Shown here in pieces: positions 1-57,476 of a stretch of DNA of 62,463 nucleotides. Under the pieces are notes generated by a model. It had not been told where the DNA came from, made no database searches, and worked only from the letters and a program-made list of their open reading frames with translations. Within the stretch, counting starts at the first letter, position 1; the number at the start of each line of letters is the position of its first letter. The DNA lies in NCBI GenBank assembly GCA_937139605.1, contig CAKZQG010000005.1, positions 1 to 62,463 on the forward strand, written 5' to 3'. Position numbers and translations under genes: made by a program. This stretch comes from an uncultured bacterium (GTDB lineage Bacteria > DRYD01).

Positions 1-1200
1 GGTGGAGGTGGAGGTGGAGGTGGAGGTGGTAATAACATAACCCTAAACCAAGCCAACCCCACTGTTAATCCTACTGTTGTTTTTAATCATACAGCACTTT
101 GCGAATTCGCTAACGGATTATTTGATGGAACTAACTACTTCATAGCAGGTAATGATTTTCCACAAAGTGGTAATTTAAATGTATATGTATATAAACTCGA
201 TAATGCATTTAATAATGCTAATCCACCACTAACAATTGATTTTAATAATGGAAACTCTAATGCCCAATTAGGTAATCTTTATATAGAGCAAGATGCTAAC
301 AATGTATATGTATTAGGCTCAACACTTAATGGAACAGATTCAGATTTATTCATAGCAAAAGTGGTAAAAAACACTAATACGTTAGATAATGCATTTGTTG
401 GTGCAGGAACAATACAAGGAGTAGTTGTTTTAGATAGAGGAAATAATGAAACTCCAGGGGGATTACTAATAGATGCTGCTAACAATGTAGGATATGCAGC
501 AGGTTACAATAATCAAAGAAAAGTTGTAATATTTAAGTTTGATACTTCTAATGGTAATTTAATTAACGCATTCGGAACAAACGGATACGCAGAAATAGAC
601 CCAGATAATAATAATAATACAGCTGATATGGCTACAGATATCTTAACAGACGGTACTAATTTAATAATAGTAGGAGAACAAACAGACACAACCACAGGAA
701 CTACTAATTTAATATTATTCAAAGTAAATCCTACAAATGGGCAACTTGTTAGTAATAGTTTAATAACAATAGCTCCACCAAGTGGGCAAATGTTTTTAGC
801 AGCTCCTTTAGATGCAGCAATTAGTAATAACAAAGTATATTTAGGTGCTAATACCCAACCTGCTAACGACAGTATTTTAGCTGTTTTTGATCTCTCCAAT
901 AATTCCGCTACTTACTATTTACTAAAAGACCAAAATAATAATAATCTTAAAATAAATATAAACGACCTTGAATTAGATGGTACTACTCTATATATGAGCG
1001 GAACATTTACAAATGGCTCTAATAATAACTTAGCATATATCAAAATCAATACAACAAATCTAATTGGTACTTACTATATAAACAGCACTGTAACTGATAA
1101 TATAATCTGGGGCAACATACCTACTGCTAATTCATTAATACTATTAGGTGGAGATTCTAACGGAACTGAGTTTAGATTAATTCCAATTAATAATCCATAA
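1..1200 (+). CDS. Secreted delta-60-type repeat protein, 5' end outside window
   Basis: The frame is open from base 1, so the N-terminus is missing; the first Met inside the window (361) is internal. The visible part starts with ten Gly codons made of alternating GGT/GGA, then about 390 residues rich in Asn, Thr and Gly. Blade-like units recur, such as FGTNGYAEID followed by DGTNLIIVGE and LILFKVNPTNG, which resembles the delta-60 repeat of extracellular beta-propeller-like proteins. The C-terminus, LLGGDSNGTEF...INNP, resembles the end of the protein at 52670-54160, so the two are paralogues. An extracellular or surface role is inferred. No enzymatic motif is seen. A strong hairpin terminator follows. 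Confidence 0.75.
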   Translation, partial: GGGGGGGGGGNNITLNQANPTVNPTVVFNHTALCEFANGLFDGTNYFIAGNDFPQSGNLNVYVYKLDNAFNNANPPLTIDFNNGNSNAQLGNLYIEQDANNVYVLGSTLNGTDSDLFIAKVVKNTNTLDNAFVGAGTIQGVVVLDRGNNETPGGLLIDAANNVGYAAGYNNQRKVVIFKFDTSNGNLINAFGTNGYAEIDPDNNNNTADMATDILTDGTNLIIVGEQTDTTTGTTNLILFKVNPTNGQLVSNSLITIAPPSGQMFLAAPLDAAISNNKVYLGANTQPANDSILAVFDLSNNSATYYLLKDQNNNNLKININDLELDGTTLYMSGTFTNGSNNNLAYIKINTTNLIGTYYINSTVTDNIIWGNIPTANSLILLGGDSNGTEFRLIPINNP

Positions 1201-12440: not shown

Positions 12441-12680
12441 TTCCAAAATTATCTTATACTTTTCCTCTTTTTAATATAATAATTCATATTGGAAATTAAT
12501 CAAATTTTTATTGTTTTTATCAAACTCTATACCTATTAGATATATCTTTTGATAATTTAAATATTTTTTATATTTACATACAACTTCGGAAATACTTTCC
12601 TCGTTGTAGTATTCTTTTTCTTTTATCTGTTTTAATGCTTTCCCTTTTCCCTCTTCTTTCTCCAGCATCTTAAACTCCAT

Positions 12681-12701
12681 TATAACGAAAGTTATATGAA
12701 A
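12681..12701. repeat. 21-bp in-frame shortened hairpin element, site E, copy 1
   Basis: The inner hairpin is gone, leaving TATAACGAAAGTTATATGAAA. It adds seven residues (FHITFVI) immediately before the catalytic MEFK of the nuclease domain. It is present at the same place in copy 2. Confidence 0.8.
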
Positions 12702-13106
12702 TATATATACTAATTTGTTATTCACTATTATTGTTAAATCTATCCGGCCTTTAGACGTATTATCTTCTATTACTACATTATATCCTGTTGAATATACTAT
12801 TCCATATATTGCTGCAGAATAAACATACTCATTTTTCAGCACTTCATAACTTATTGAATTTATAAACACTTCTATTTGTTTTCTTATTTCTTCCAGATTT
12901 TCTTTTATTAATGCTAATTCTAAGGGTTTTGTTATATATTGTTTATAATCTCTCGTTATATAAAACAATAATTCATTGTTAAATGCTTCTCTTACTTCTC
13001 TATTTGGATAATCTAACGTATATACTTCCCTTGATCCTACTTTTTCTATCTCATTTATTGTTAAATACCCCGTTTGAAACATCAATGCTTCTATGCATAT
13101 ATATTC

Positions 13107-13139
13107 TATAACGAGAGATGTATTCTCGAAGTTATATGA
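13107..13139. repeat. 33-bp in-frame hairpin element, site F, copy 1
   Basis: The same outer arms TATAAC/GTTATA with inner arms GAGA/TCTC. At 33 bases it is in frame and adds SYNFENTSLVI to the protein. It is present at the same place in copy 2. Confidence 0.8.
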
Positions 13140-13342
13140 TAATATGTCAAACTTCTCTAATATCTCTTCTGTATAATATCTCTTATACAAATAAGGTAAA
13201 TCAAAGTTCCTTTGTTTTATTATTTTAAATAAGAACTCTGTTCTTCCCGTTTCGTACCAATAATTCCTTATCTCCTTTTTATCTAAATATAACAACACAT
13301 CAAACGGATTATACACTTTATTAGCTAAAAAATTATATCCGT

Positions 13343-13376
13343 TATAACGAACGCAGTATGCGTGAGTTATATGAAA
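13343..13376. repeat. 34-bp hairpin element, site D, copy 1
   Basis: Second tandem unit. Inner arms ACGC/GCGT. Removing both units (68 bases) joins GAGTGG to TATAACGGATAT and restores the conserved EWYNGYNF line of the family. Confidence 0.85.
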
Positions 13377-13410
13377 TATAACGAACACAGTATGTGTGAG
13401 TTATATGAAA
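13377..13410. repeat. 34-bp hairpin element, site C, copy 1
   Basis: First of two tandem units in reading order. Inner arms ACAC/GTGT with loop AGTAT. It abuts the next unit without a gap, and each junction carries TATA. Confidence 0.85.
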
Positions 13411-13554
13411 TATACCACTCTTTTACTTCTTCTATATTTACATCCTTTAAATACTCCTTAAAATAATGCTCTAATTCACTTTGAGTATATCCACATATAT
13501 CCCCATACCTCTTATCTAATGAGATATCCTTTAATTGATTTAATCCACTAAATA

Positions 13555-25273: not shown

Positions 25274-25442
25274 ATTTTAAATTTTATCAATAAATTAACT
25301 TTTCCCTTTTTTGTATATTTTTTTTAACATTTTTAATTATTTTTTTACTTTTTTAACAATTTAAGAAAAAATTTTTAAATATAAAAATTATACTTAATAA
25401 TAAGTAAAAATATTAATTTAACTAAAAAGGGGGTTAAAAAAA

Positions 25443-26429
25443 ATGATGAATTTCAATTATTCTAATTTTTCATTTAATTTTACAAATACTAGTTTTAATT
25501 TTAGTAGTATAAGTATTTCTAATTTTCCAAATATAACAAACAACTACCCAATTGATAATTATAATCCATTAAATAATCCATTAACAGCTGGATTAGTAGG
25601 GGGATTATTAGGAGGAGTAGTAGGTGGGTTATTAGCTTCAGCTCTTCCTTTAATGAATAATTTTTCATCTCCACTAAATACCCCTTTTAGCTTCCCGTTT
25701 AACAATAATTTCAATAATTTCAATAATTTAAATTCTATAAATTCAACCAATCCTATGCTATTATTAACTTTATTAATGCTATTATTAATGTTAATCCAAA
25801 ATAAAGCTAATATGAATTCTATAGGTGGATTTCCTAATATGGGTGGATTTCCCGGTATGGGTGGATTTCCTAGTATAGGTGGATTTCCTAATATGGGTGG
25901 GGTTCCTAATATAGGTGGATTTCCTAATATGGGTAGATTTCCTGGTATGGGTGGATTTCCTAATGCAGGTGGATTTCCTAATATAGGAGGTTCATCTAAT
26001 ACAGGTTTTAGGAATTTCATTCCTCAAAATCAAATAGATAGAATAATATTACAAGCAGCACAAAGATACAATTTAGATCCTGCTTTAATAAAAGCAGTAA
26101 TAAAACAGGAAAGTGGATTTAATGCTAATGCTAGATCTCATGCAGGTGCAATGGGATTAATGCAATTAATGCCAGGTACCGCTAGATCCTTAGGAGTAGA
26201 TAACCCATTTGATCCTGTTCAAAACGTAATGGGAGGAGCAAAGTATTTAAGACAGATGTTAGATATGTTTGGAGGTAGAGTAGAATTAGCATTAACAGCA
26301 TATAATGCAGGCCCTGGAAACGTGAAAAGATACGGAGGAATCCCACCATTTGCTGAAACTCAAAACTATGTTAGAAAAGTAATGACATACTATCAACAAT
26401 ACAAATCAGAAATGAGATATATTGCATAA
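25443..26429 (+). CDS. Lytic transglycosylase (SLT) with Gly-Phe-Pro hexapeptide repeats
   Basis: The C-terminal domain (about 195-320) is a family 1 SLT lytic transglycosylase that cleaves peptidoglycan: [14 protein letters not shown] with catalytic Glu223, [18 protein letters not shown], and [15 protein letters not shown]. The first 190 residues are unusual. There is no standard signal peptide but an Asn/Phe/Ser-rich stretch, a Gly-zipper hydrophobic segment (48-70), a Leu-rich hydrophobic segment (105-118), and ten units of the type GGFPNM (128-187). How it reaches the wall is unclear. The ribosome site is AAAGGGGGTT before two Met codons. Confidence 0.85.
25824..26003 (+). repeat. 18-bp tandem coding repeat (ten GGFPNM-type units)
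   Basis: Ten tandem 18-base units code for [54 protein letters not shown] and GGSSNT. Unit number can probably change by slippage. They form the linker before the transglycosylase domain. Confidence 0.9.
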
Positions 26430-37427: not shown

Positions 37428-37955
37428 ATGACTATATTTTTTATATTTAAATTTAAAATAATTAAAATAGTATTTTTTCTTTTTACAATTAATTTATTTT
37501 CTTTAACTTTTTCAGAAGAAACAGAAAAGAAACAAAAAAATAAATATAAATTGACCTATGCATTAGAGTTAAATTTCTCTCTAAAAGATCATACAACAAC
37601 ATATAGAAATTACATAGAATATCAAATAAGTGAAAAATATAAACTCAGATTAATTTTTAGAGAAATAGATCAAAATACAGACTTTGATATAAGATTGTAT
37701 TACAAAATAAATAAAAATTCAAGTATATATATAGCTGAAAGTAGCAAATATTTTTCCTTTAATTACACTTATAAATTTGATACAAATTATCCAATAAGTA
37801 TAGAATCTACTTTTATAAAGCACAAAGATTTTATCCAAGTAAATCCGGCAATAAAAATAGAATTAAATGATAATTTTCATCTTAAATATGGAATAAATAA
37901 TATAACAAAAGAACCTAATCCGTATATAAGACCATCTTTTATCTTTAGATTCTAA
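37428..37955 (+). CDS. Small predicted outer-membrane beta-barrel protein
   Basis: 175 residues. Residues about 5-30 form a signal peptide (IIKIVFFLFTINLFSLTFS then EE). The mature part alternates polar and aromatic residues in about eight strands (YALELNFSL, YRNYIEYQIS, KLRLIFREI, FDIRLYYKI, SFNYTYKF, ISIESTFI, HLKYGIN) and ends in SFIFRF with a terminal Phe, as in BAM-targeted barrels. Function unknown. It is evidence for an outer membrane. It is convergent with the EamA gene, 6 bases apart. Confidence 0.6.
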   Translation: MTIFFIFKFKIIKIVFFLFTINLFSLTFSEETEKKQKNKYKLTYALELNFSLKDHTTTYRNYIEYQISEKYKLRLIFREIDQNTDFDIRLYYKINKNSSIYIAESSKYFSFNYTYKFDTNYPISIESTFIKHKDFIQVNPAIKIELNDNFHLKYGINNITKEPNPYIRPSFIFRF

Positions 37956-39006: not shown

Positions 39007-40401
39007 ATGGATATAAATCCAATAAGAGGTAATTATCAAAAGATAGAAAGCAGATCTCCAGAATATGAAAGAGTAATATTTACTGGAGATAAAGCAGAAA
39101 TAGAAAAACTACTTACTAAATTAAGTGTAGGTAAAATAGTAGAAGACTTAGGTAATGGATTTTATTTAGCACAAGTAAAAAAAGGAGCATCACCTGAAAT
39201 ATTTAAAGCATTACCAGATAATTTAAAAGCCTTCATAGATGAAAAAGTAGAATTAGTTAGACCTGAAGAAGAAAAAGAAGTTCTAAAAAAGAGAAAGCTA
39301 GAGGAACTTAAAAGGGAAGGAGAACAAAAACCCCCATCTTTGCCTGAAACTAATGTTACCTTAGATATAACCCAAGCAAATAAAGTCCATGAAATGGGGA
39401 TAAAAGGCCAAGGTGTAGTAGTAGCTGTTATAGATACAGGCATAGGAAAGCATGACGACTTTGGAGATAGATTAACATACTTTTATGATGCTACAAAAGG
39501 TGAAAGAACAGAACCAAGAGACGGTCATGGTCATGGAACCCATGTTGCAGGTATAGCTGCAGGTGATGGAAAATTTACTGGTTTATCACCAGCATCTGAA
39601 ATCTGGGGAATAAAAGTCTTAGGTGACGATGGTAGCGGATATACTTCTGATATCATTAGAGGAATAAACCAAGTAGTAGAAAAAGCTAAAGCAGAAGGTA
39701 AAAAGGTAGTAGCAAATATGAGTTTAGGAGGATATGCATTTAAACCTTGGAACCAAGATCCATTAGCATTAGCAGTAGAAAAAGCTATAAAAGATGGGGT
39801 ATATTTTGCAATAGCAGCAGGTAACAGTGGCCCATACCCTAACACAGTTGGAACTCCTGCTATAGCACCAAATGCAGTAACCGTTGCAGCATACGATGAT
39901 AAAAAAACTACCGACTTAAGCGATGATGATATAGCAAGATTTTCCTCAAGAGGACCAGTTAAAAATGCACCTGATGAAACAAGCAAATTAAAGCCTGATG
40001 TTTCTATGCCAGGGGTTAAAATATGGGCCGCAAATGTACCGGGTAGTGAATTAGATCAATTAGCTTCTCAAGGGAAAATTCCAAGAACAGCAGATGGAAA
40101 ATATATAGCAATAAGTGGTACTTCCATGGCAACCCCAGGTGTAGCAGGTGCAATGGCTTTAATACTATCTGCTAATCCAAACCTAACAGAAGCACAAGTA
40201 AAAGAACTACTAATGAAACATACTATTAAACTTGAAAAAACAGATCCAACAGATAATAAACCTTATGATCAATTCGACCAAGGTGCTGGTCTTGTTAATG
40301 TATATGAAGCTGTAAAAGAAGCATTAAGTATGTTGCCTCAACCTCCACAACCAGAACTTAATCCACAACCTAACCCCCAAGAGCCATCTCCTAAGAAGTA
40401 A
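39007..40401 (+). CDS. Subtilisin-like serine protease without signal peptide
   Basis: 464 residues. The catalytic triad is complete: Asp143 in AVIDTG, His176 in HGHGTHVAG, Ser373 in GTSMATPG, with oxyanion Asn273 in AAGNSGP. An N-terminal region of about 110 residues looks like an inhibitor-type propeptide followed by a charged linker (EEEKEVLKKRKLEELKREGE). There is no signal peptide or membrane segment, and the C-terminus is a Pro-rich tail (PQPPQPELNPQPNP). It therefore resembles intracellular or non-classically exported subtilases. Codons are richer in G+C and the ribosome site is near perfect, suggesting high expression. Confidence 0.93.
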   Translation: MDINPIRGNYQKIESRSPEYERVIFTGDKAEIEKLLTKLSVGKIVEDLGNGFYLAQVKKGASPEIFKALPDNLKAFIDEKVELVRPEEEKEVLKKRKLEELKREGEQKPPSLPETNVTLDITQANKVHEMGIKGQGVVVAVIDTGIGKHDDFGDRLTYFYDATKGERTEPRDGHGHGTHVAGIAAGDGKFTGLSPASEIWGIKVLGDDGSGYTSDIIRGINQVVEKAKAEGKKVVANMSLGGYAFKPWNQDPLALAVEKAIKDGVYFAIAAGNSGPYPNTVGTPAIAPNAVTVAAYDDKKTTDLSDDDIARFSSRGPVKNAPDETSKLKPDVSMPGVKIWAANVPGSELDQLASQGKIPRTADGKYIAISGTSMATPGVAGAMALILSANPNLTEAQVKELLMKHTIKLEKTDPTDNKPYDQFDQGAGLVNVYEAVKEALSMLPQPPQPELNPQPNPQEPSPKK

Positions 40402-42071: not shown

Positions 42072-42428
42072 ATTATTCTAATTTTTTATTTAATATAATT
42101 TTCCTTCAAAAATAAACATTTTTTTATATCTTAAATACTTCAGTATTATTTATTACATTGTTATTCATTAAGCGGGAATTTAACTCCCTACAATTAACTT
42201 GAAATTTCATTTAAATTACTTATATCTATCTTCGATATCACTAAATTATTACTACTATTTTATCTTTTCATATTCAAAATCAACTACATCTTTCTTTACC
42301 TTATCAAACTCTATCCCCACTAAATATATCTTCTCATAATTCAAATACTTCTTATGATACTCCTTTTCTTTTATCTGCTTTAACGCACTCCCTTTTTCTC
42401 TTTCATTCTCTATTACCTTAAACTCCAT

Positions 42429-42449
42429 TATAACGAAAGTTATATGAAA
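42429..42449. repeat. 21-bp in-frame shortened hairpin element, site E, copy 2
   Basis: Encodes FHITFVI just before the catalytic MEFK of the nuclease domain, identical to copy 1. Confidence 0.8.
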
Positions 42450-42857
42450 TATATACACCAGCCTTTTATCTACCACTACCGTTAAATCTATTCTCCCTTT
42501 TGACGTATTGTCTTCTATTATCACATTTAACCCTGTTGCATATACTAATCCATATATTGCTGCTGCATATACATATTCGTTTTTTAACACCTCATAACTT
42601 ATTGTACTTATAAACACCTCTATTTGCTTTTTTATCTCTTGTAGATCTTCTCTTTTAAATGCTATATTTATTAATGTTGTTTTATCTATTTGGTAATCTC
42701 CTGTTATATAAAATAATATCTCACTATTAAATGATTTTCTTACCTCTTTATTCGGATAATCTAATGAATATAATACTTCCTCATTTTCATACTTATACTC
42801 CTCTTTTATTGTTAAATATCCAGTTTGAAACATTAATGCTTCTATGCTTATATATTC

Positions 42858-42890
42858 TATAACGAGAGATGTATTCTCGAAGTTATATGA
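42858..42890. repeat. 33-bp in-frame hairpin element, site F, copy 2
   Basis: Inner arms GAGA/TCTC. It encodes SYNFENTSLVI in frame, as in copy 1. Confidence 0.8.
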
Positions 42891-43093
42891 TAATATGTCA
42901 AACTTCTCTAATATTTCACTTGTATAATATTTCTTATGTAAATAAGGTAAATCAAAGTTCCTTTGTTTTATTATTTTAAATAAAAATTCTGTTCTTCCTG
43001 TTTCGTACCAATAATTCCTTATCTCCTTCTTCTTTAAATATAACAACACATCAAATGGATTATATACTTTATTAGCTAAAAAATTATATCCGT

Positions 43094-43127
43094 TATAACG
43101 AACGCAGTATGCGTGAGTTATATGAAA
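43094..43127. repeat. 34-bp hairpin element, site D, copy 2
   Basis: Inner arms ACGC/GCGT. Second tandem unit; excision of both restores EWYNGYNF. Confidence 0.85.
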
Positions 43128-43161
43128 TATAACGAACACAGTATGTGTGAGTTATATGAAA
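43128..43161. repeat. 34-bp hairpin element, site C, copy 2
   Basis: Inner arms ACAC/GTGT. First of two tandem units, as in copy 1. Confidence 0.85.
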
Positions 43162-43847
43162 TATACCACTCTCTTACTTCTTCTATATTTACATTATCCA
43201 AATACTCTTTAAAATAATATTCTAATTCTTCTTGGGTATATCCGCATATATCTCCATATTCCCTGCTTAATGAGATATCTTCTAATTGATTTAATCCACT
43301 AAAAAGAGATACTTTTGCAAATTTTGAAACCCCCGTTACTATCACAAACTTTATATACTCATCCAGCCCTTTTAACACTGAATAAAAACTCTTTAATGTT
43401 TTTCTTACCTCTTCTGCTTCTTTTCTTTCTTCTATTACATCTAATATCGGCTTGTCATATTCATCTATTAACACCACCACTTGATTATTATATCTTTCAC
43501 TTATTTCTATTATTAAATTCTGTAACATTAATCCTAACATGATTCTCTTCTTTTTCTTTTTCTTTTTCTATTTTCATTTTCTTATAATTTAACCTTACTT
43601 CATTCCTTATTACTTCATATATTTCACTTAGTGTTTTTATATCTACTGCAAAGTTTATTCTTATTACTGGATATTTTTCACTCCAATTCCACTTGTCTTC
43701 TATATACAATCCTTTAAATAATTCTCTTTTCCCTTCATATAAATACTCTATTGTTGATAATAATAATGATTTCCCAAAGCGTCTTGGTCTGCTTAAAAAT
43801 ATATATCCTCCACTATTCACTAATTCATATATATACTTTGTCTTATC

Positions 43848-44672: not shown

Positions 44673-45929
44673 TTATTTTCCTCCCGGCACAGGTTCTCCC
44701 CCTCCTCCCTTACAATCTGCCCATGCTACTGCCACAATAAAAGACAAGCTAGAAAATGCTATAACATCAATTAAATTTAGTTTCCTATATCCTGAATGAG
44801 CTAATATAAATGATTTACCATCTACTGATACTAAAAATGTATTTACATTACTTTTTAATTCTAATGTCATTACTTTATCAATTATTTTTTCTTTTCTTAT
44901 TTGTTTTATTTCTTGCCAGCTATAATCCCCATCTTGATAAACCAATACCTTATCTCCAATATTTAATTTTTCTGCTTTTTTAATATTATTATTTTTATCG
45001 ATAACTAAAGGATGATTTGGAGTTAATCTCAATTTAGAATTTTCCGTTATTATCTCTAATATCTCATATTCTTTTTTATCATGCATATGTATTTTCTCTA
45101 TTTCTATTTCTTTTAATTTATAATTTTCTACTGGATCTATTGTTATAATTATATCTCCTATTTTTACATCCCCCATCCTTTTTAGTTTATAATTATCATA
45201 TTCTTTTGCTAAAATTAGTGTTGATAGTTCAAAACACTTCTTGTCTTGATCCTCTTTCTTGTCAGGACCATCATCCTTGTCAGGACCTCCATCTTTGGCA
45301 AGACTTCCACCGCCACTACCGCCTATTGTATCAATCGTAATCTCAGTATAATTAGGTAAAAAGCTTGTAGTCTCTTTCTCAACAAAAACAGGGAGAAAAG
45401 TTTCTACCTTGTTTTCATTATCTTTACCTTTTATTTTATAATTTATAGTTAATTTTATATAGAATTTATATAGCATTTGGTTTTGCTTTTGGAGATAAAC
45501 ATTAGTTAAAGCATTTTGGACTTCACTACTACTTTCTATAGGATTAGCATATATACTTGTAATTACGATATTTTCTAAATCGTTATCTTTATTAAGTTTA
45601 GAAATTAAATAATTTGCATAATCATTTAATTTTGATGCTAATTCACTTAAAGTAGATACTTTTAAATATAGTTCTCGTTTATTTTCAATGTACAGGTTAA
45701 AATATGTTTGAGTTTTTTTAGCAATTAAGTCGTTATACATTACTTTATTATGCATTTTAATTATGCTATAATAAACAGAAGCTAATGCAAGGATACATAA
45801 AGTAACTATAGCAATAAATGCTACTACCTCTAACAAGCTAAACCCAATATTATTTAATTTATTCCTTAATTTGTCATTTTTTTTAAGATTTATTTTATTA
45901 TTTTTTATTTTTTTTATGTTTTTATTCAT
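44673..45929 (-). CDS. Pilin-Hint fusion: prepilin N-terminus plus C-terminal hedgehog/intein-type domain
   Basis: 418 residues. After a long basic leader (1-29), IGFSLLEVVAFIAIVTLCIL gives the prepilin cleavage site with Glu34 at +5 of the mature protein. A pilin-like ectodomain reaches about residue 200. A Gly/Asp/Lys linker (203-231) then leads to a Hint domain: Cys232 (KKCFELSTLIL), MGDVKIGDIIITI, LRLTPNHPLVI with the TxxH at 303-306, AEKLNIGDKVLV, and NTFLVSVDGKSFILAHSG ending at His378. There is no Asn before the last Ser, so thioester formation and N-terminal cleavage are plausible while splicing is not. A last hydrophobic segment (386-404) and GGGGEPVPGGK tail follow. Confidence 0.85.
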   Translation of the reverse strand: MNKNIKKIKNNKINLKKNDKLRNKLNNIGFSLLEVVAFIAIVTLCILALASVYYSIIKMHNKVMYNDLIAKKTQTYFNLYIENKRELYLKVSTLSELASKLNDYANYLISKLNKDNDLENIVITSIYANPIESSSEVQNALTNVYLQKQNQMLYKFYIKLTINYKIKGKDNENKVETFLPVFVEKETTSFLPNYTEITIDTIGGSGGGSLAKDGGPDKDDGPDKKEDQDKKCFELSTLILAKEYDNYKLKRMGDVKIGDIIITIDPVENYKLKEIEIEKIHMHDKKEYEILEIITENSKLRLTPNHPLVIDKNNNIKKAEKLNIGDKVLVYQDGDYSWQEIKQIRKEKIIDKVMTLELKSNVNTFLVSVDGKSFILAHSGYRKLNLIDVIAFSSLSFIVAVAWADCKGGGGEPVPGGK

Positions 45930-56335: not shown

Positions 56336-57476
56336 TTATAATATTTTCAAATTTAACCCAAGTTTGCTCAAGTTTCTCCCCTTTTCTATTGGATCTATTT
56401 TAAATAAATTACCTATTATATTAATTATAGAAAATGTTAAATTAAGATTTAAATTTAGAGTTTTAGCTATTAAATAAGCAGGAACTAAGGTATTCAAAGT
56501 ATCCTCATATAAAAACCGATTAAAAATATCAGTTGGAAGTTTTGTATATCTGTAATTTGCTACTGTTTTTATAGCAGTTAGTAAATCCGATTTATCACAA
56601 GTATAGTATCTATAGAGCAATTCTTTAGGTTCTATTATATTTGTATTAAAAGCATTTGCTAAAGAATTAAATTCTTTATATAAATTTTCTATTAAAATAA
56701 CGGTATTTGGAGTTATCCCTTCTTGATAAAATAATATATCCTTTTTATTATCTATATTAGCTAAATTGATTATAGAGATAACAGGGTGAGCTAAAGCTCC
56801 AAAATCCGTTAACCCCCGCTGAATAAAATTATCCGCTACTTCTAAATCTATATCATTTATAAAATAATTTCTTAAAATTTTATAAATCTCTAAGTCAGGA
56901 TTAGATTGTAAGTAATCATTAGCAGTTATCATTAGATTCCATCGTTTTATTAGCAGTTATCATTAGATTCCATCGTTTTATTCCTCTTACCCAGATTTTA
57001 TTTTCCTCTATTTTTCTAGCAGCAAATAATGCATCAGTTTCTATTATATTTAAATCAAAAATATTATTATCATTAAATATCTTTTTAAAAACTAAAATTC
57101 CCCCTAATTTTGATGAAAATAAAATTATATTATGAAATTTCGGATTAAAATTTTTAGCTTTAATCAGTTTAGATGCTATTTCTTCATAGTATGTTGTAAT
57201 TGATGTTATAAATATATCCCTAGTTAATGCCAAAAATTCTTCCAAGTTATTAGTTATATAAAAATCTTTATCTTTAATTAACGTATGTTCTATTTTATCT
57301 ATAGAAAAAATAGTAGTTAATCCAAGGTTTTTAGGATTATTAGTAAATGCGATTATTTTTTGATTATGTTTTTTATTTAAATAAGCTAATAAAGATAAAC
57401 CTATATTTCCTAAACCATATATTCCTATCATTACAATATAATTTTCTATATTTAAATACATTTCCCTTTTTTTCAT
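56336..57476 (-). pseudogene. Opine-type NAD(P) dehydrogenase gene split by a 31-bp tandem duplication
   Basis: The upstream part encodes a Rossmann domain (MIGIYGLGNIGLSLLAYLNK, IFITSITTYYEEIASKL, ETDALFAARKI, VRGIKRWNLMITAN). It then ends early at NKTMESNDNC. The downstream frame restarts MITANDYLQS and encodes the octopine-dehydrogenase domain (ALAHPVISIINLANI, ILFYQEGITPNTVILIENLY). The cause is a perfect 31-base tandem repeat at 56920-56981. Deleting one unit joins WNLMITAN directly to DYLQS in one frame. The family reduces keto acids with amino acids; the exact substrate is unknown. Probable original start is MIGIYGLG (57431). Confidence 0.85.
56920..56981. repeat. 31-bp perfect tandem duplication inside the dehydrogenase gene
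   Basis: Two identical adjacent 31-base units (56920-56950 and 56951-56981), each beginning TAGCAGTTATCATT. 31 is not a multiple of three, so it breaks the gene. Confidence 0.95.

What the first reader, a model, noticed from the sequence alone, without database searches (positions are those of the whole stretch)
25443..26429. Peptidoglycan hydrolase with a Gly-zipper and GGFPNM repeats but no standard signal peptide
The catalytic domain is intact, yet the N-terminal 190 residues are low complexity, with two hydrophobic segments and ten tandem hexapeptides. Such repeats can span the wall or self-assemble. The export route is unclear.
Basis: seen in the sequence. Interest (0 to 1): 0.5.

Follow-up and report, generated by a model that had tools for sequence, protein, structure and literature searches.

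The report
Wall-cutting enzyme with unusual delivery module
A bacterial cell-wall-cutting enzyme carries, in place of an export signal, an almost charge-free sticky front module that the same lineage also fuses to a second, unrelated wall-cutting enzyme and seems to make on its own; it may mark cargo for a flagellum-like export machine that has lost its filament.

Summary
Observation confirmed. The 328-residue ORF at 25443-26429 has an intact SLT lytic-transglycosylase domain (PF01464, 4e-34) behind about 190 low-complexity residues: charge-poor leader, Gly zipper (47-68), Leu helix (105-118), ten tandem hexapeptides. It has no Sec-type N-terminus; the hydrophobic internal start M105 lacks a Shine-Dalgarno and is not conserved.

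The front part is a module. In this genome and its relatives it also fronts an NlpC/P60 peptidase, and related zipper/Leu-helix proteins of about 175 residues stand alone. A profile of the stand-alone form matched 5 of 386 genomes, all of one family. Repeat units change between species.

Context found here: of 7 genomes of the order, 7 have one flagellar-type FlhA and 5 have FliG, but none has a detectable flagellin N domain, FliD N domain, T6SS VipB or contractile sheath. Five other SLT enzymes of the order that I scored lack membrane segments and signal peptides.

Best reading (0.4): cargo of a filament-less flagellar type III exporter, working like a two-domain harpin. Rival (0.33): signal-anchor insertion through SRP/Sec/YidC; the Leu helix's hydrophobicity favours it. 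Neither route is shown. New variant of a known kind; not filed as a harpin.

The parts
25427..25433 (+). AAGGGGG, Shine-Dalgarno-like stretch
   Evidence: sequence; a comparable stretch precedes the 12 other module genes examined
25443..26429 (+). gene for a 328-residue SLT lytic transglycosylase with N-terminal module
   Evidence: ORF; orthologues in G001, G002 and, cut by a contig end, G003
25443..25580 (+). N/S/F-rich leader, residues 1-46, one charged residue (D38)
25581..25646 (+). Gly zipper segment, residues 47-68 (predicted insertion dG +0.27)
25755..25796 (+). Leu-rich helix, residues 105-118 (dG12-17 -2.89; dG18-35 -0.41)
   Evidence: parameters recalled
25821..26000 (+). ten tandem hexapeptides, residues 127-186, consensus GGFPNM
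26046..26366 (+). SLT domain PF01464, residues 202-308; catalytic-motif E223
   Evidence: AlphaFold and Foldseek

Best explanation
Residues 1-190 are a transferable, almost charge-free delivery and membrane-assembly module. The enzyme has no Sec signal. Most likely it leaves the cytoplasm through the lineage's flagellar-type type III export apparatus, which appears to have lost its filament, with the disordered N/S-rich leader as signal. Outside, the Gly zipper and Leu helix associate with membrane, with each other and with the stand-alone zipper protein, while the disordered GGFPxM linker lets the SLT domain cut peptidoglycan nearby. In effect it works like a two-domain harpin (secreted Gly-rich part plus wall-acting enzyme). 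Shown by sequence: sharing of the module with an NlpC/P60 enzyme, intact catalytic motifs, absence of Sec features, flagellar export genes without detectable flagellin or FliD in 7 of 7 genomes. Inferred: export through that system, membrane association, assembly with the stand-alone protein, place of action.
For: Module shared in order from residue 1 by SLT and NlpC/P60 proteins (124 columns, 98.9% probability). FlhA 7 of 7, FliG_C 5 of 7, FlhB, FlgG, an FlgE/F/G-type protein and FliK recognised in sampled loci, flagellin N 0 of 7, FliD N 0 of 7. No VipB or contractile sheath in 7 of 7. Five other SLTs of the order, two of them beside flagellar-type genes, have no hydrophobic segment (lowest dG18-35 +3.26 to +5.89) and no signal-peptide-like start by eye, so signal-less SLTs are usual here. 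Leaders show the three T3SS-substrate patterns of PMC3338616 (abstract) in 5 of 10 SLT/NlpC proteins and at least two in 10 of 10 (4 of 9 and 9 of 9 without the module-less G006 SLT), against 9 and 119 of 508 other ORFs. Whole-segment dG (-0.75 to +0.99 in the 9 SLT/NlpC module proteins) is weaker than for ordinary single-span proteins and near the range reported for T3SS-exported membrane proteins (PMC6110835 passages). Precedent: a non-flagellated Lysobacter keeps a working flagellar T3SS said to be needed for toxin secretion (PMC9927559 passages).
Against: The Leu helix has SRP-like local hydrophobicity: dG12-17 is below -2.0, the reported peak of SRP substrates, in 6 of 9 SLT/NlpC module proteins (window -2.89) and is -4.2 and -4.4 in the two short proteins scored. 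Flagellar-type proteins of the same genomes do not share the leader patterns (7 scored, scores 0-1), and the short proteins score 1, 1, 1, 1, 2. Genes beside the module genes in the loci listed are not flagellar by eye. G006 has FlhA but no module match. Known flagellar SLTs BB0259 and SltF use Sec (PMC8517470, PMC7277832 passages). Export itself was not observed; rings, ATPase and stator genes were not searched for.
Confidence: 0.4

Rival explanations
1. Signal-anchor membrane protein. The Leu helix, with or without the Gly zipper as a second span, is inserted by SRP/Sec or YidC without cleavage; the GGFPxM linker reaches through the periplasm and the SLT domain stays tethered to the inner membrane.
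For: dG12-17 -2.89 for the window Leu helix and below -2.0 in 6 of 9 SLT/NlpC module proteins; two short proteins -4.2 and -4.4 (SRP range from PMC6110835 passages). Low-confidence AlphaFold helices at 46-71 and 104-119.
Against: Flanks carry N/Q instead of K/R and the first K is at 121, so topology is undetermined. Segments are weak in genus g2: SLT of G002 dG18-35 +0.99 and dG12-17 -0.44, G003 +0.95 and -1.25. Five related SLTs of the order have no such segment, so it would not explain them.
Confidence: 0.33
2. Cytoplasmic or self-assembling protein. The module forms inclusions, coacervates or scaffold, and the enzyme reaches the wall only on lysis or serves programmed autolysis.
For: No recognisable signal; module nearly charge-free with G, F, P, M and N dominant; a large related-looking protein with GMPGMGL repeats weakly matches Lamprin, below cut-off.
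Against: Catalytic motifs conserved in the orthologues that reach that region; PG hydrolases normally act outside; the module is kept on two different wall enzymes.
Confidence: 0.15
3. Antibacterial effector whose Gly zipper permeabilises a target cell membrane.
For: An N-terminal Gly zipper is needed for translocation of the T6SS effector Tde1 into target cells (PMC10240207 passages).
Against: No T6SS VipB and no contractile sheath in 7 of 7 genomes. Gene stands between rlmN-like and antiporter-like genes on the other strand (by eye); no immunity candidate was recognised by eye and none was searched for.
Confidence: 0.05

Closest known systems
Two-domain harpins of plant pathogens (HrpW1, HopP1, HopAK1)
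   Same: Signal-less, Gly-rich, Cys-free (window protein) part joined to a wall-acting enzyme; such proteins may target periplasm or plant wall (PMC6123991 passages). HopP1 is listed as a harpin in a passage of PMC4700148; that it carries a lytic transglycosylase domain is recalled.
   Different: No harpin family hit among Pfam matches up to E=1 for the window protein; module not acidic (1 acidic, 3 basic in 1-190); no injectisome: the only FlhA-type gate found is one per genome.
Flagellar lytic transglycosylases (FlgJ, SltF, BB0259, CwlQ-like)
   Same: SLT domain; best NCBIfam score is to BB0259_flg_lyt, domain only and below cut-off (115 against 234). SLTs in the order's flagellar-type loci are up to 65% identical over the domain.
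   Different: BB0259 and SltF use Sec; none is known to me with this front module; the window gene is not beside flagellar genes.
Filament-less flagellar T3SS (Lysobacter enzymogenes OH11)
   Same: Export gate kept, filament and cap genes lost, secretion still active (PMC9927559 passages).
   Different: FliG lost in Lysobacter, found here in 5 of 7; cargo unknown; different lineage.
Gly-zipper T6SS effector Tde1
   Same: N-terminal Gly zipper before an enzyme domain.
   Different: DNase, T6SS-borne; no T6SS VipB here.

Membership tests
SLT lytic transglycosylase (PF01464) | domain match above curated cut-off | tested here: met
   117 bits against 21.3
SLT lytic transglycosylase (PF01464) | catalytic Glu motif and GLMQ, AYNAG motifs (motifs recalled) | tested here: met
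   E223, 238, 286
SLT lytic transglycosylase (PF01464) | enzyme activity | not testable with these tools
   none
Harpin | sequence match to a harpin family | tested here: not met
   no harpin among Pfam matches at E up to 1 for the window protein and seven other proteins; at E up to 0.1 for the G000 NlpC protein
Harpin | Gly-rich, no Cys | tested here: met
   module 15% Gly, no Cys in the window protein (by eye); the NlpC paralogue has Cys
Harpin | acidic | tested here: not met
   1 acidic and 3 basic residues in 1-190
Harpin | secreted by a T3SS | not testable with these tools
   indirect only
T6SS or contractile injection effector | sheath genes in the genome | tested here: not met
   VipB 0 of 7, Phage_sheath_1 0 of 7
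Sec-exported hydrolase | n-region with K/R, h-region near the N-terminus | tested here: not met
   no K/R in 1-120, hydrophobic stretch from 47; no predictor run
SAR endolysin | single weak Gly/Ala-rich TM at the extreme N-terminus (recalled) | tested here: not met
   46-residue leader first, then a second Leu-rich helix
Flagellar T3SS substrate | gate recognition motif and N-terminal hydrophobic signal (PMC8983047, abstract and passages) | not tested
   motif too loose for a Phe-rich leader to be informative

The most novel reading that the evidence does not exclude
An uncultured lineage has turned its flagellum, minus the filament, into a general protein exporter, and the charge-free leader/zipper/Leu-helix/GFPxM module is a new class of type III delivery and anchoring domain, swapped between unrelated peptidoglycan hydrolases and also made alone as partner or translocator.
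Probability: 0.27. Interest if true: 0.8.

Novelty: new variant of a known kind. Interest (0 to 1): 0.55.

Why it matters
If right, it shows how wall hydrolases can leave a cell without Sec, and it names candidate cargo for filament-less flagellar machines, whose purpose is an open question. The module would be a small, swappable export or anchoring tag. If the rival is right, it is still a compact case of one membrane-tether design reused on two different wall enzymes.

Tried and rejected
Alternative start giving a signal peptide: M105 is the start next to the strong hydrophobic stretch; it has no Shine-Dalgarno and is not conserved. T6SS and contractile injection: no apparatus genes found. 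Phage origin: SLT genes on C21 and C31 look phage-like by eye but match the window only in the SLT domain, at 36-39% identity. Harpin homology: none found. Descent of the window SLT from the flagellar-operon SLT: suggestive only; the fork that holds it, the two G006 SLTs and a Sporosarcina SLT has 88/86 support and is drawn open. Flagellar regulation: by eye I saw no sigma-28-like box (motif recalled) upstream of the window gene; not scanned. The sister isolate in print: no paper with RSWP7. Structure of the module: AlphaFold pLDDT under 50 for 1-109 and 112-191. Two-zipper proteins of 232-268 residues (L045, L047, L143, L146) have different N-termini and were set aside. C27-type proteins (A4) share elements in another order and match the short proteins only over 23 zipper columns, and large 732-832-residue proteins (L087, L090, L149) share zippers and GMPGMGL-like repeats; I count neither as the same module.

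Hydrophobicity parameters were recalled, not fetched. Controls: window antiporter -4.69, AtpE-like -3.41, and 26 of the 48 window ORFs above +1.5. The 371 ORFs and 508 come from stretches mostly chosen because they hold module, zipper or flagellar-type genes, so they are no random sample.

Full report
What is there. The window is the whole contig C5 of a 1.88 Mb, 45-contig genome (G000, 88.5% complete), about 24% G+C over the window. The gene at 25443-26429 encodes 328 residues. Its C-terminal third is a complete SLT lytic transglycosylase, modelled with good confidence, with lytic transglycosylases as the best structural matches. Residues 1-190 hold 4 charged residues: D38, K121, R165 and R190. 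They comprise an N/S/F-rich leader, a Gly zipper (47-68), a Phe/Asn-rich stretch, a Leu helix (105-118) and ten hexapeptides (127-186).

The start is credible. A Shine-Dalgarno-like stretch lies before the annotated start here and before each of 12 other module genes, and none before M105. The protein is 76% identical from its first residue on in the sister species G001. Proteins of this window that look Sec-exported, such as the ORFs at 37428, 52670 and 5150, begin with K/R-bearing n-regions (by eye). No signal-peptide predictor was available.

It is a module, not a one-off. A search of the seven genomes of the order with residues 1-190 found SLT orthologues in G001 and, cut by a contig end, G003; the G002 orthologue came from the full-length search. 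One search also found a second gene in G000, on contig C15, with a like front and an NlpC/P60 domain (PF00877). NlpC forms also occur in G001 and G003 (frame ends early; Pfam) and, by alignment, in G002 and G005. SLT and NlpC profiles align from residue 1 across 124 columns through leader, zipper, Leu helix and first repeats (98.9% probability). The profiles are shallow and the sequence is of low complexity, so the E-value should not be taken literally; the collinearity is the argument. Proteins of 170-183 residues with zipper and Leu helix but no enzyme occur in G000-G004. Their match to the SLT profile covers 28 columns at the zipper, and to the NlpC profile 26 columns at the Leu helix, so their kinship is plausible but weaker. 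G004 also has a leader plus zipper cut by a contig end. A profile of the short protein matched 5 of 386 genomes, all of this family. G006, of another family, had no match to the module and one weak match (E=2) to the short protein.

The front is unusual in its genome. Of 371 ORFs in 475 kb of sampled stretches, 8 have no charged residue at positions 2-36: seven are SLT, NlpC or short proteins of this set, the eighth is hydrophobic from its start. The sample is biased towards these loci.

The repeats turn over fast. G000 has GGFPNM-type units, G001 [13 protein letters not shown]002 an eight-residue GGMPSMPF type. Within the G000 array codons are nearly identical from unit to unit. Composition is kept and sequence is not, which suits a flexible linker.

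How does it get out? T6SS VipB and contractile sheath were absent in 7 of 7 genomes, with controls ringing. FlhA occurs once in each of 7 and FliG_C in 5 of 7; the two without it are 71% and 79% complete. The flagellin N domain and the FliD N domain were found in 0 of 7, with controls ringing. Pfam recognises FlhB, FliG (three domains), FlgG, FlgE/F/G-type proteins and FliK in sampled loci; FliK of G002 is below its cut-off, that of G000 above. So the order seems to keep a flagellar export apparatus with rod-type proteins but no filament or cap. Divergent flagellins cannot be excluded, and rings, ATPase and stators were not searched for. SLT genes stand beside flagellar-type genes in G000, G002, G005 and G006. 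Five SLTs of the order other than the module type have no hydrophobic segment and no signal-peptide-like start by eye. Signal-less SLTs are thus usual here; they must use a route other than a classical Sec signal, or stay inside.

Does the front look like a type III substrate? By the three patterns in the abstract of PMC3338616, 5 of 10 SLT/NlpC proteins show all three and 10 of 10 at least two; without the module-less G006 SLT these are 4 of 9 and 9 of 9. Among 508 other ORFs the figures are 9 and 119. That paper's abstract also says the patterns are not absolutely required. Against this, the five short proteins score 1, 1, 1, 1, 2, the large proteins 3, 1, 2, and seven flagellar-type proteins of the same genomes 0-1. 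Hydrophobicity is mixed: whole-segment dG is marginal (-0.75 to +0.99 in nine SLT/NlpC proteins), near values reported for T3SS-exported membrane proteins, but the local 12-17-residue value is below -2.0, the reported SRP-substrate peak, in 6 of those 9 and in both short proteins scored (thresholds from passages of PMC6110835).

Weighing. A common module on two different wall hydrolases is well supported. The export route is circumstantial and partly contradictory, so type III export gets 0.4 and signal-anchor insertion 0.33. The design works like a two-domain harpin, described in passages of PMC6123991 as T3SS accessory proteins with an additional enzymatic domain that may target periplasm or plant wall. 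Two harpin features tested here, sequence match and acidity, are not met, so it is not filed as one. Passages of PMC9927559 give the precedent that a flagellar T3SS stays active in a non-flagellated bacterium. Passages of PMC8517470 and PMC7277832 give the counter-example: two known flagellar SLTs use Sec.

Literature limits. The nine library searches listed no title or abstract that I recognised as describing this module; I read listings, two abstracts with outlines and passages, no whole paper, and most subscription papers are not held.

Noticed in passing
window 44673-45929 (-): ORF that starts like a type IV prepilin (GFSLLEVVAFIAIVTL...) and ends in what looks like a Hedgehog/intein (Hint)-type domain, with an 18-bp repeat at 45258-45309 between them (domains by eye).
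   Followed up: no
window 13343-13414 and 43094-43165: The same 34-bp unit (2.1 copies, 94%) lies at two places, each at the start of one of two similar ORFs (12471-13388 and 42255-43139, both -) whose upstream reading frames look broken.
   Followed up: no
window 56900-56982: A 31-bp tandem repeat sits where two overlapping minus-strand ORFs (56336-56932 and 56919-57476) meet; they may be pieces of one dehydrogenase-like gene (by eye).
   Followed up: no
window 1-1200: The contig starts inside a GGTGGA array coding poly-Gly; L190 16150-17601 has a Cys followed by poly-Gly after a signal-like start, so this gene may be a lipoprotein cut by the contig end (by eye).
   Followed up: no
window 39007-40401 (+); L087 6676-7893; L089 15553-16470: Subtilase S8, carboxypeptidase M14 and peptidase M28 proteins without signal-peptide-like start or hydrophobic segment: possibly further signal-less export, or plain intracellular enzymes.
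   Followed up: partly
L087 16104-18452; L090 3529-6024; L149 292-2487: Large coiled-coil-like proteins (783, 832, 732 residues) with Gly zippers and GMPGMGL-like repeats; the G000 one has a charge-poor S/N-rich N-terminus. Pfam matches of two of them are weak and below cut-off.
   Followed up: partly
L136 2928-3614; L142 1676-2407; L148 1915-2637: Related-looking proteins of 229-244 residues with a Gln-flanked aliphatic helix, GFPPVGGPI-like repeats and a long C-terminal Gly-zipper region, in G000, G001 and G002.
   Followed up: partly
L003 and L004 (G000 contigs C21, C31): Phage-like gene clusters holding other SLT-domain proteins (cluster type by eye).
   Followed up: no
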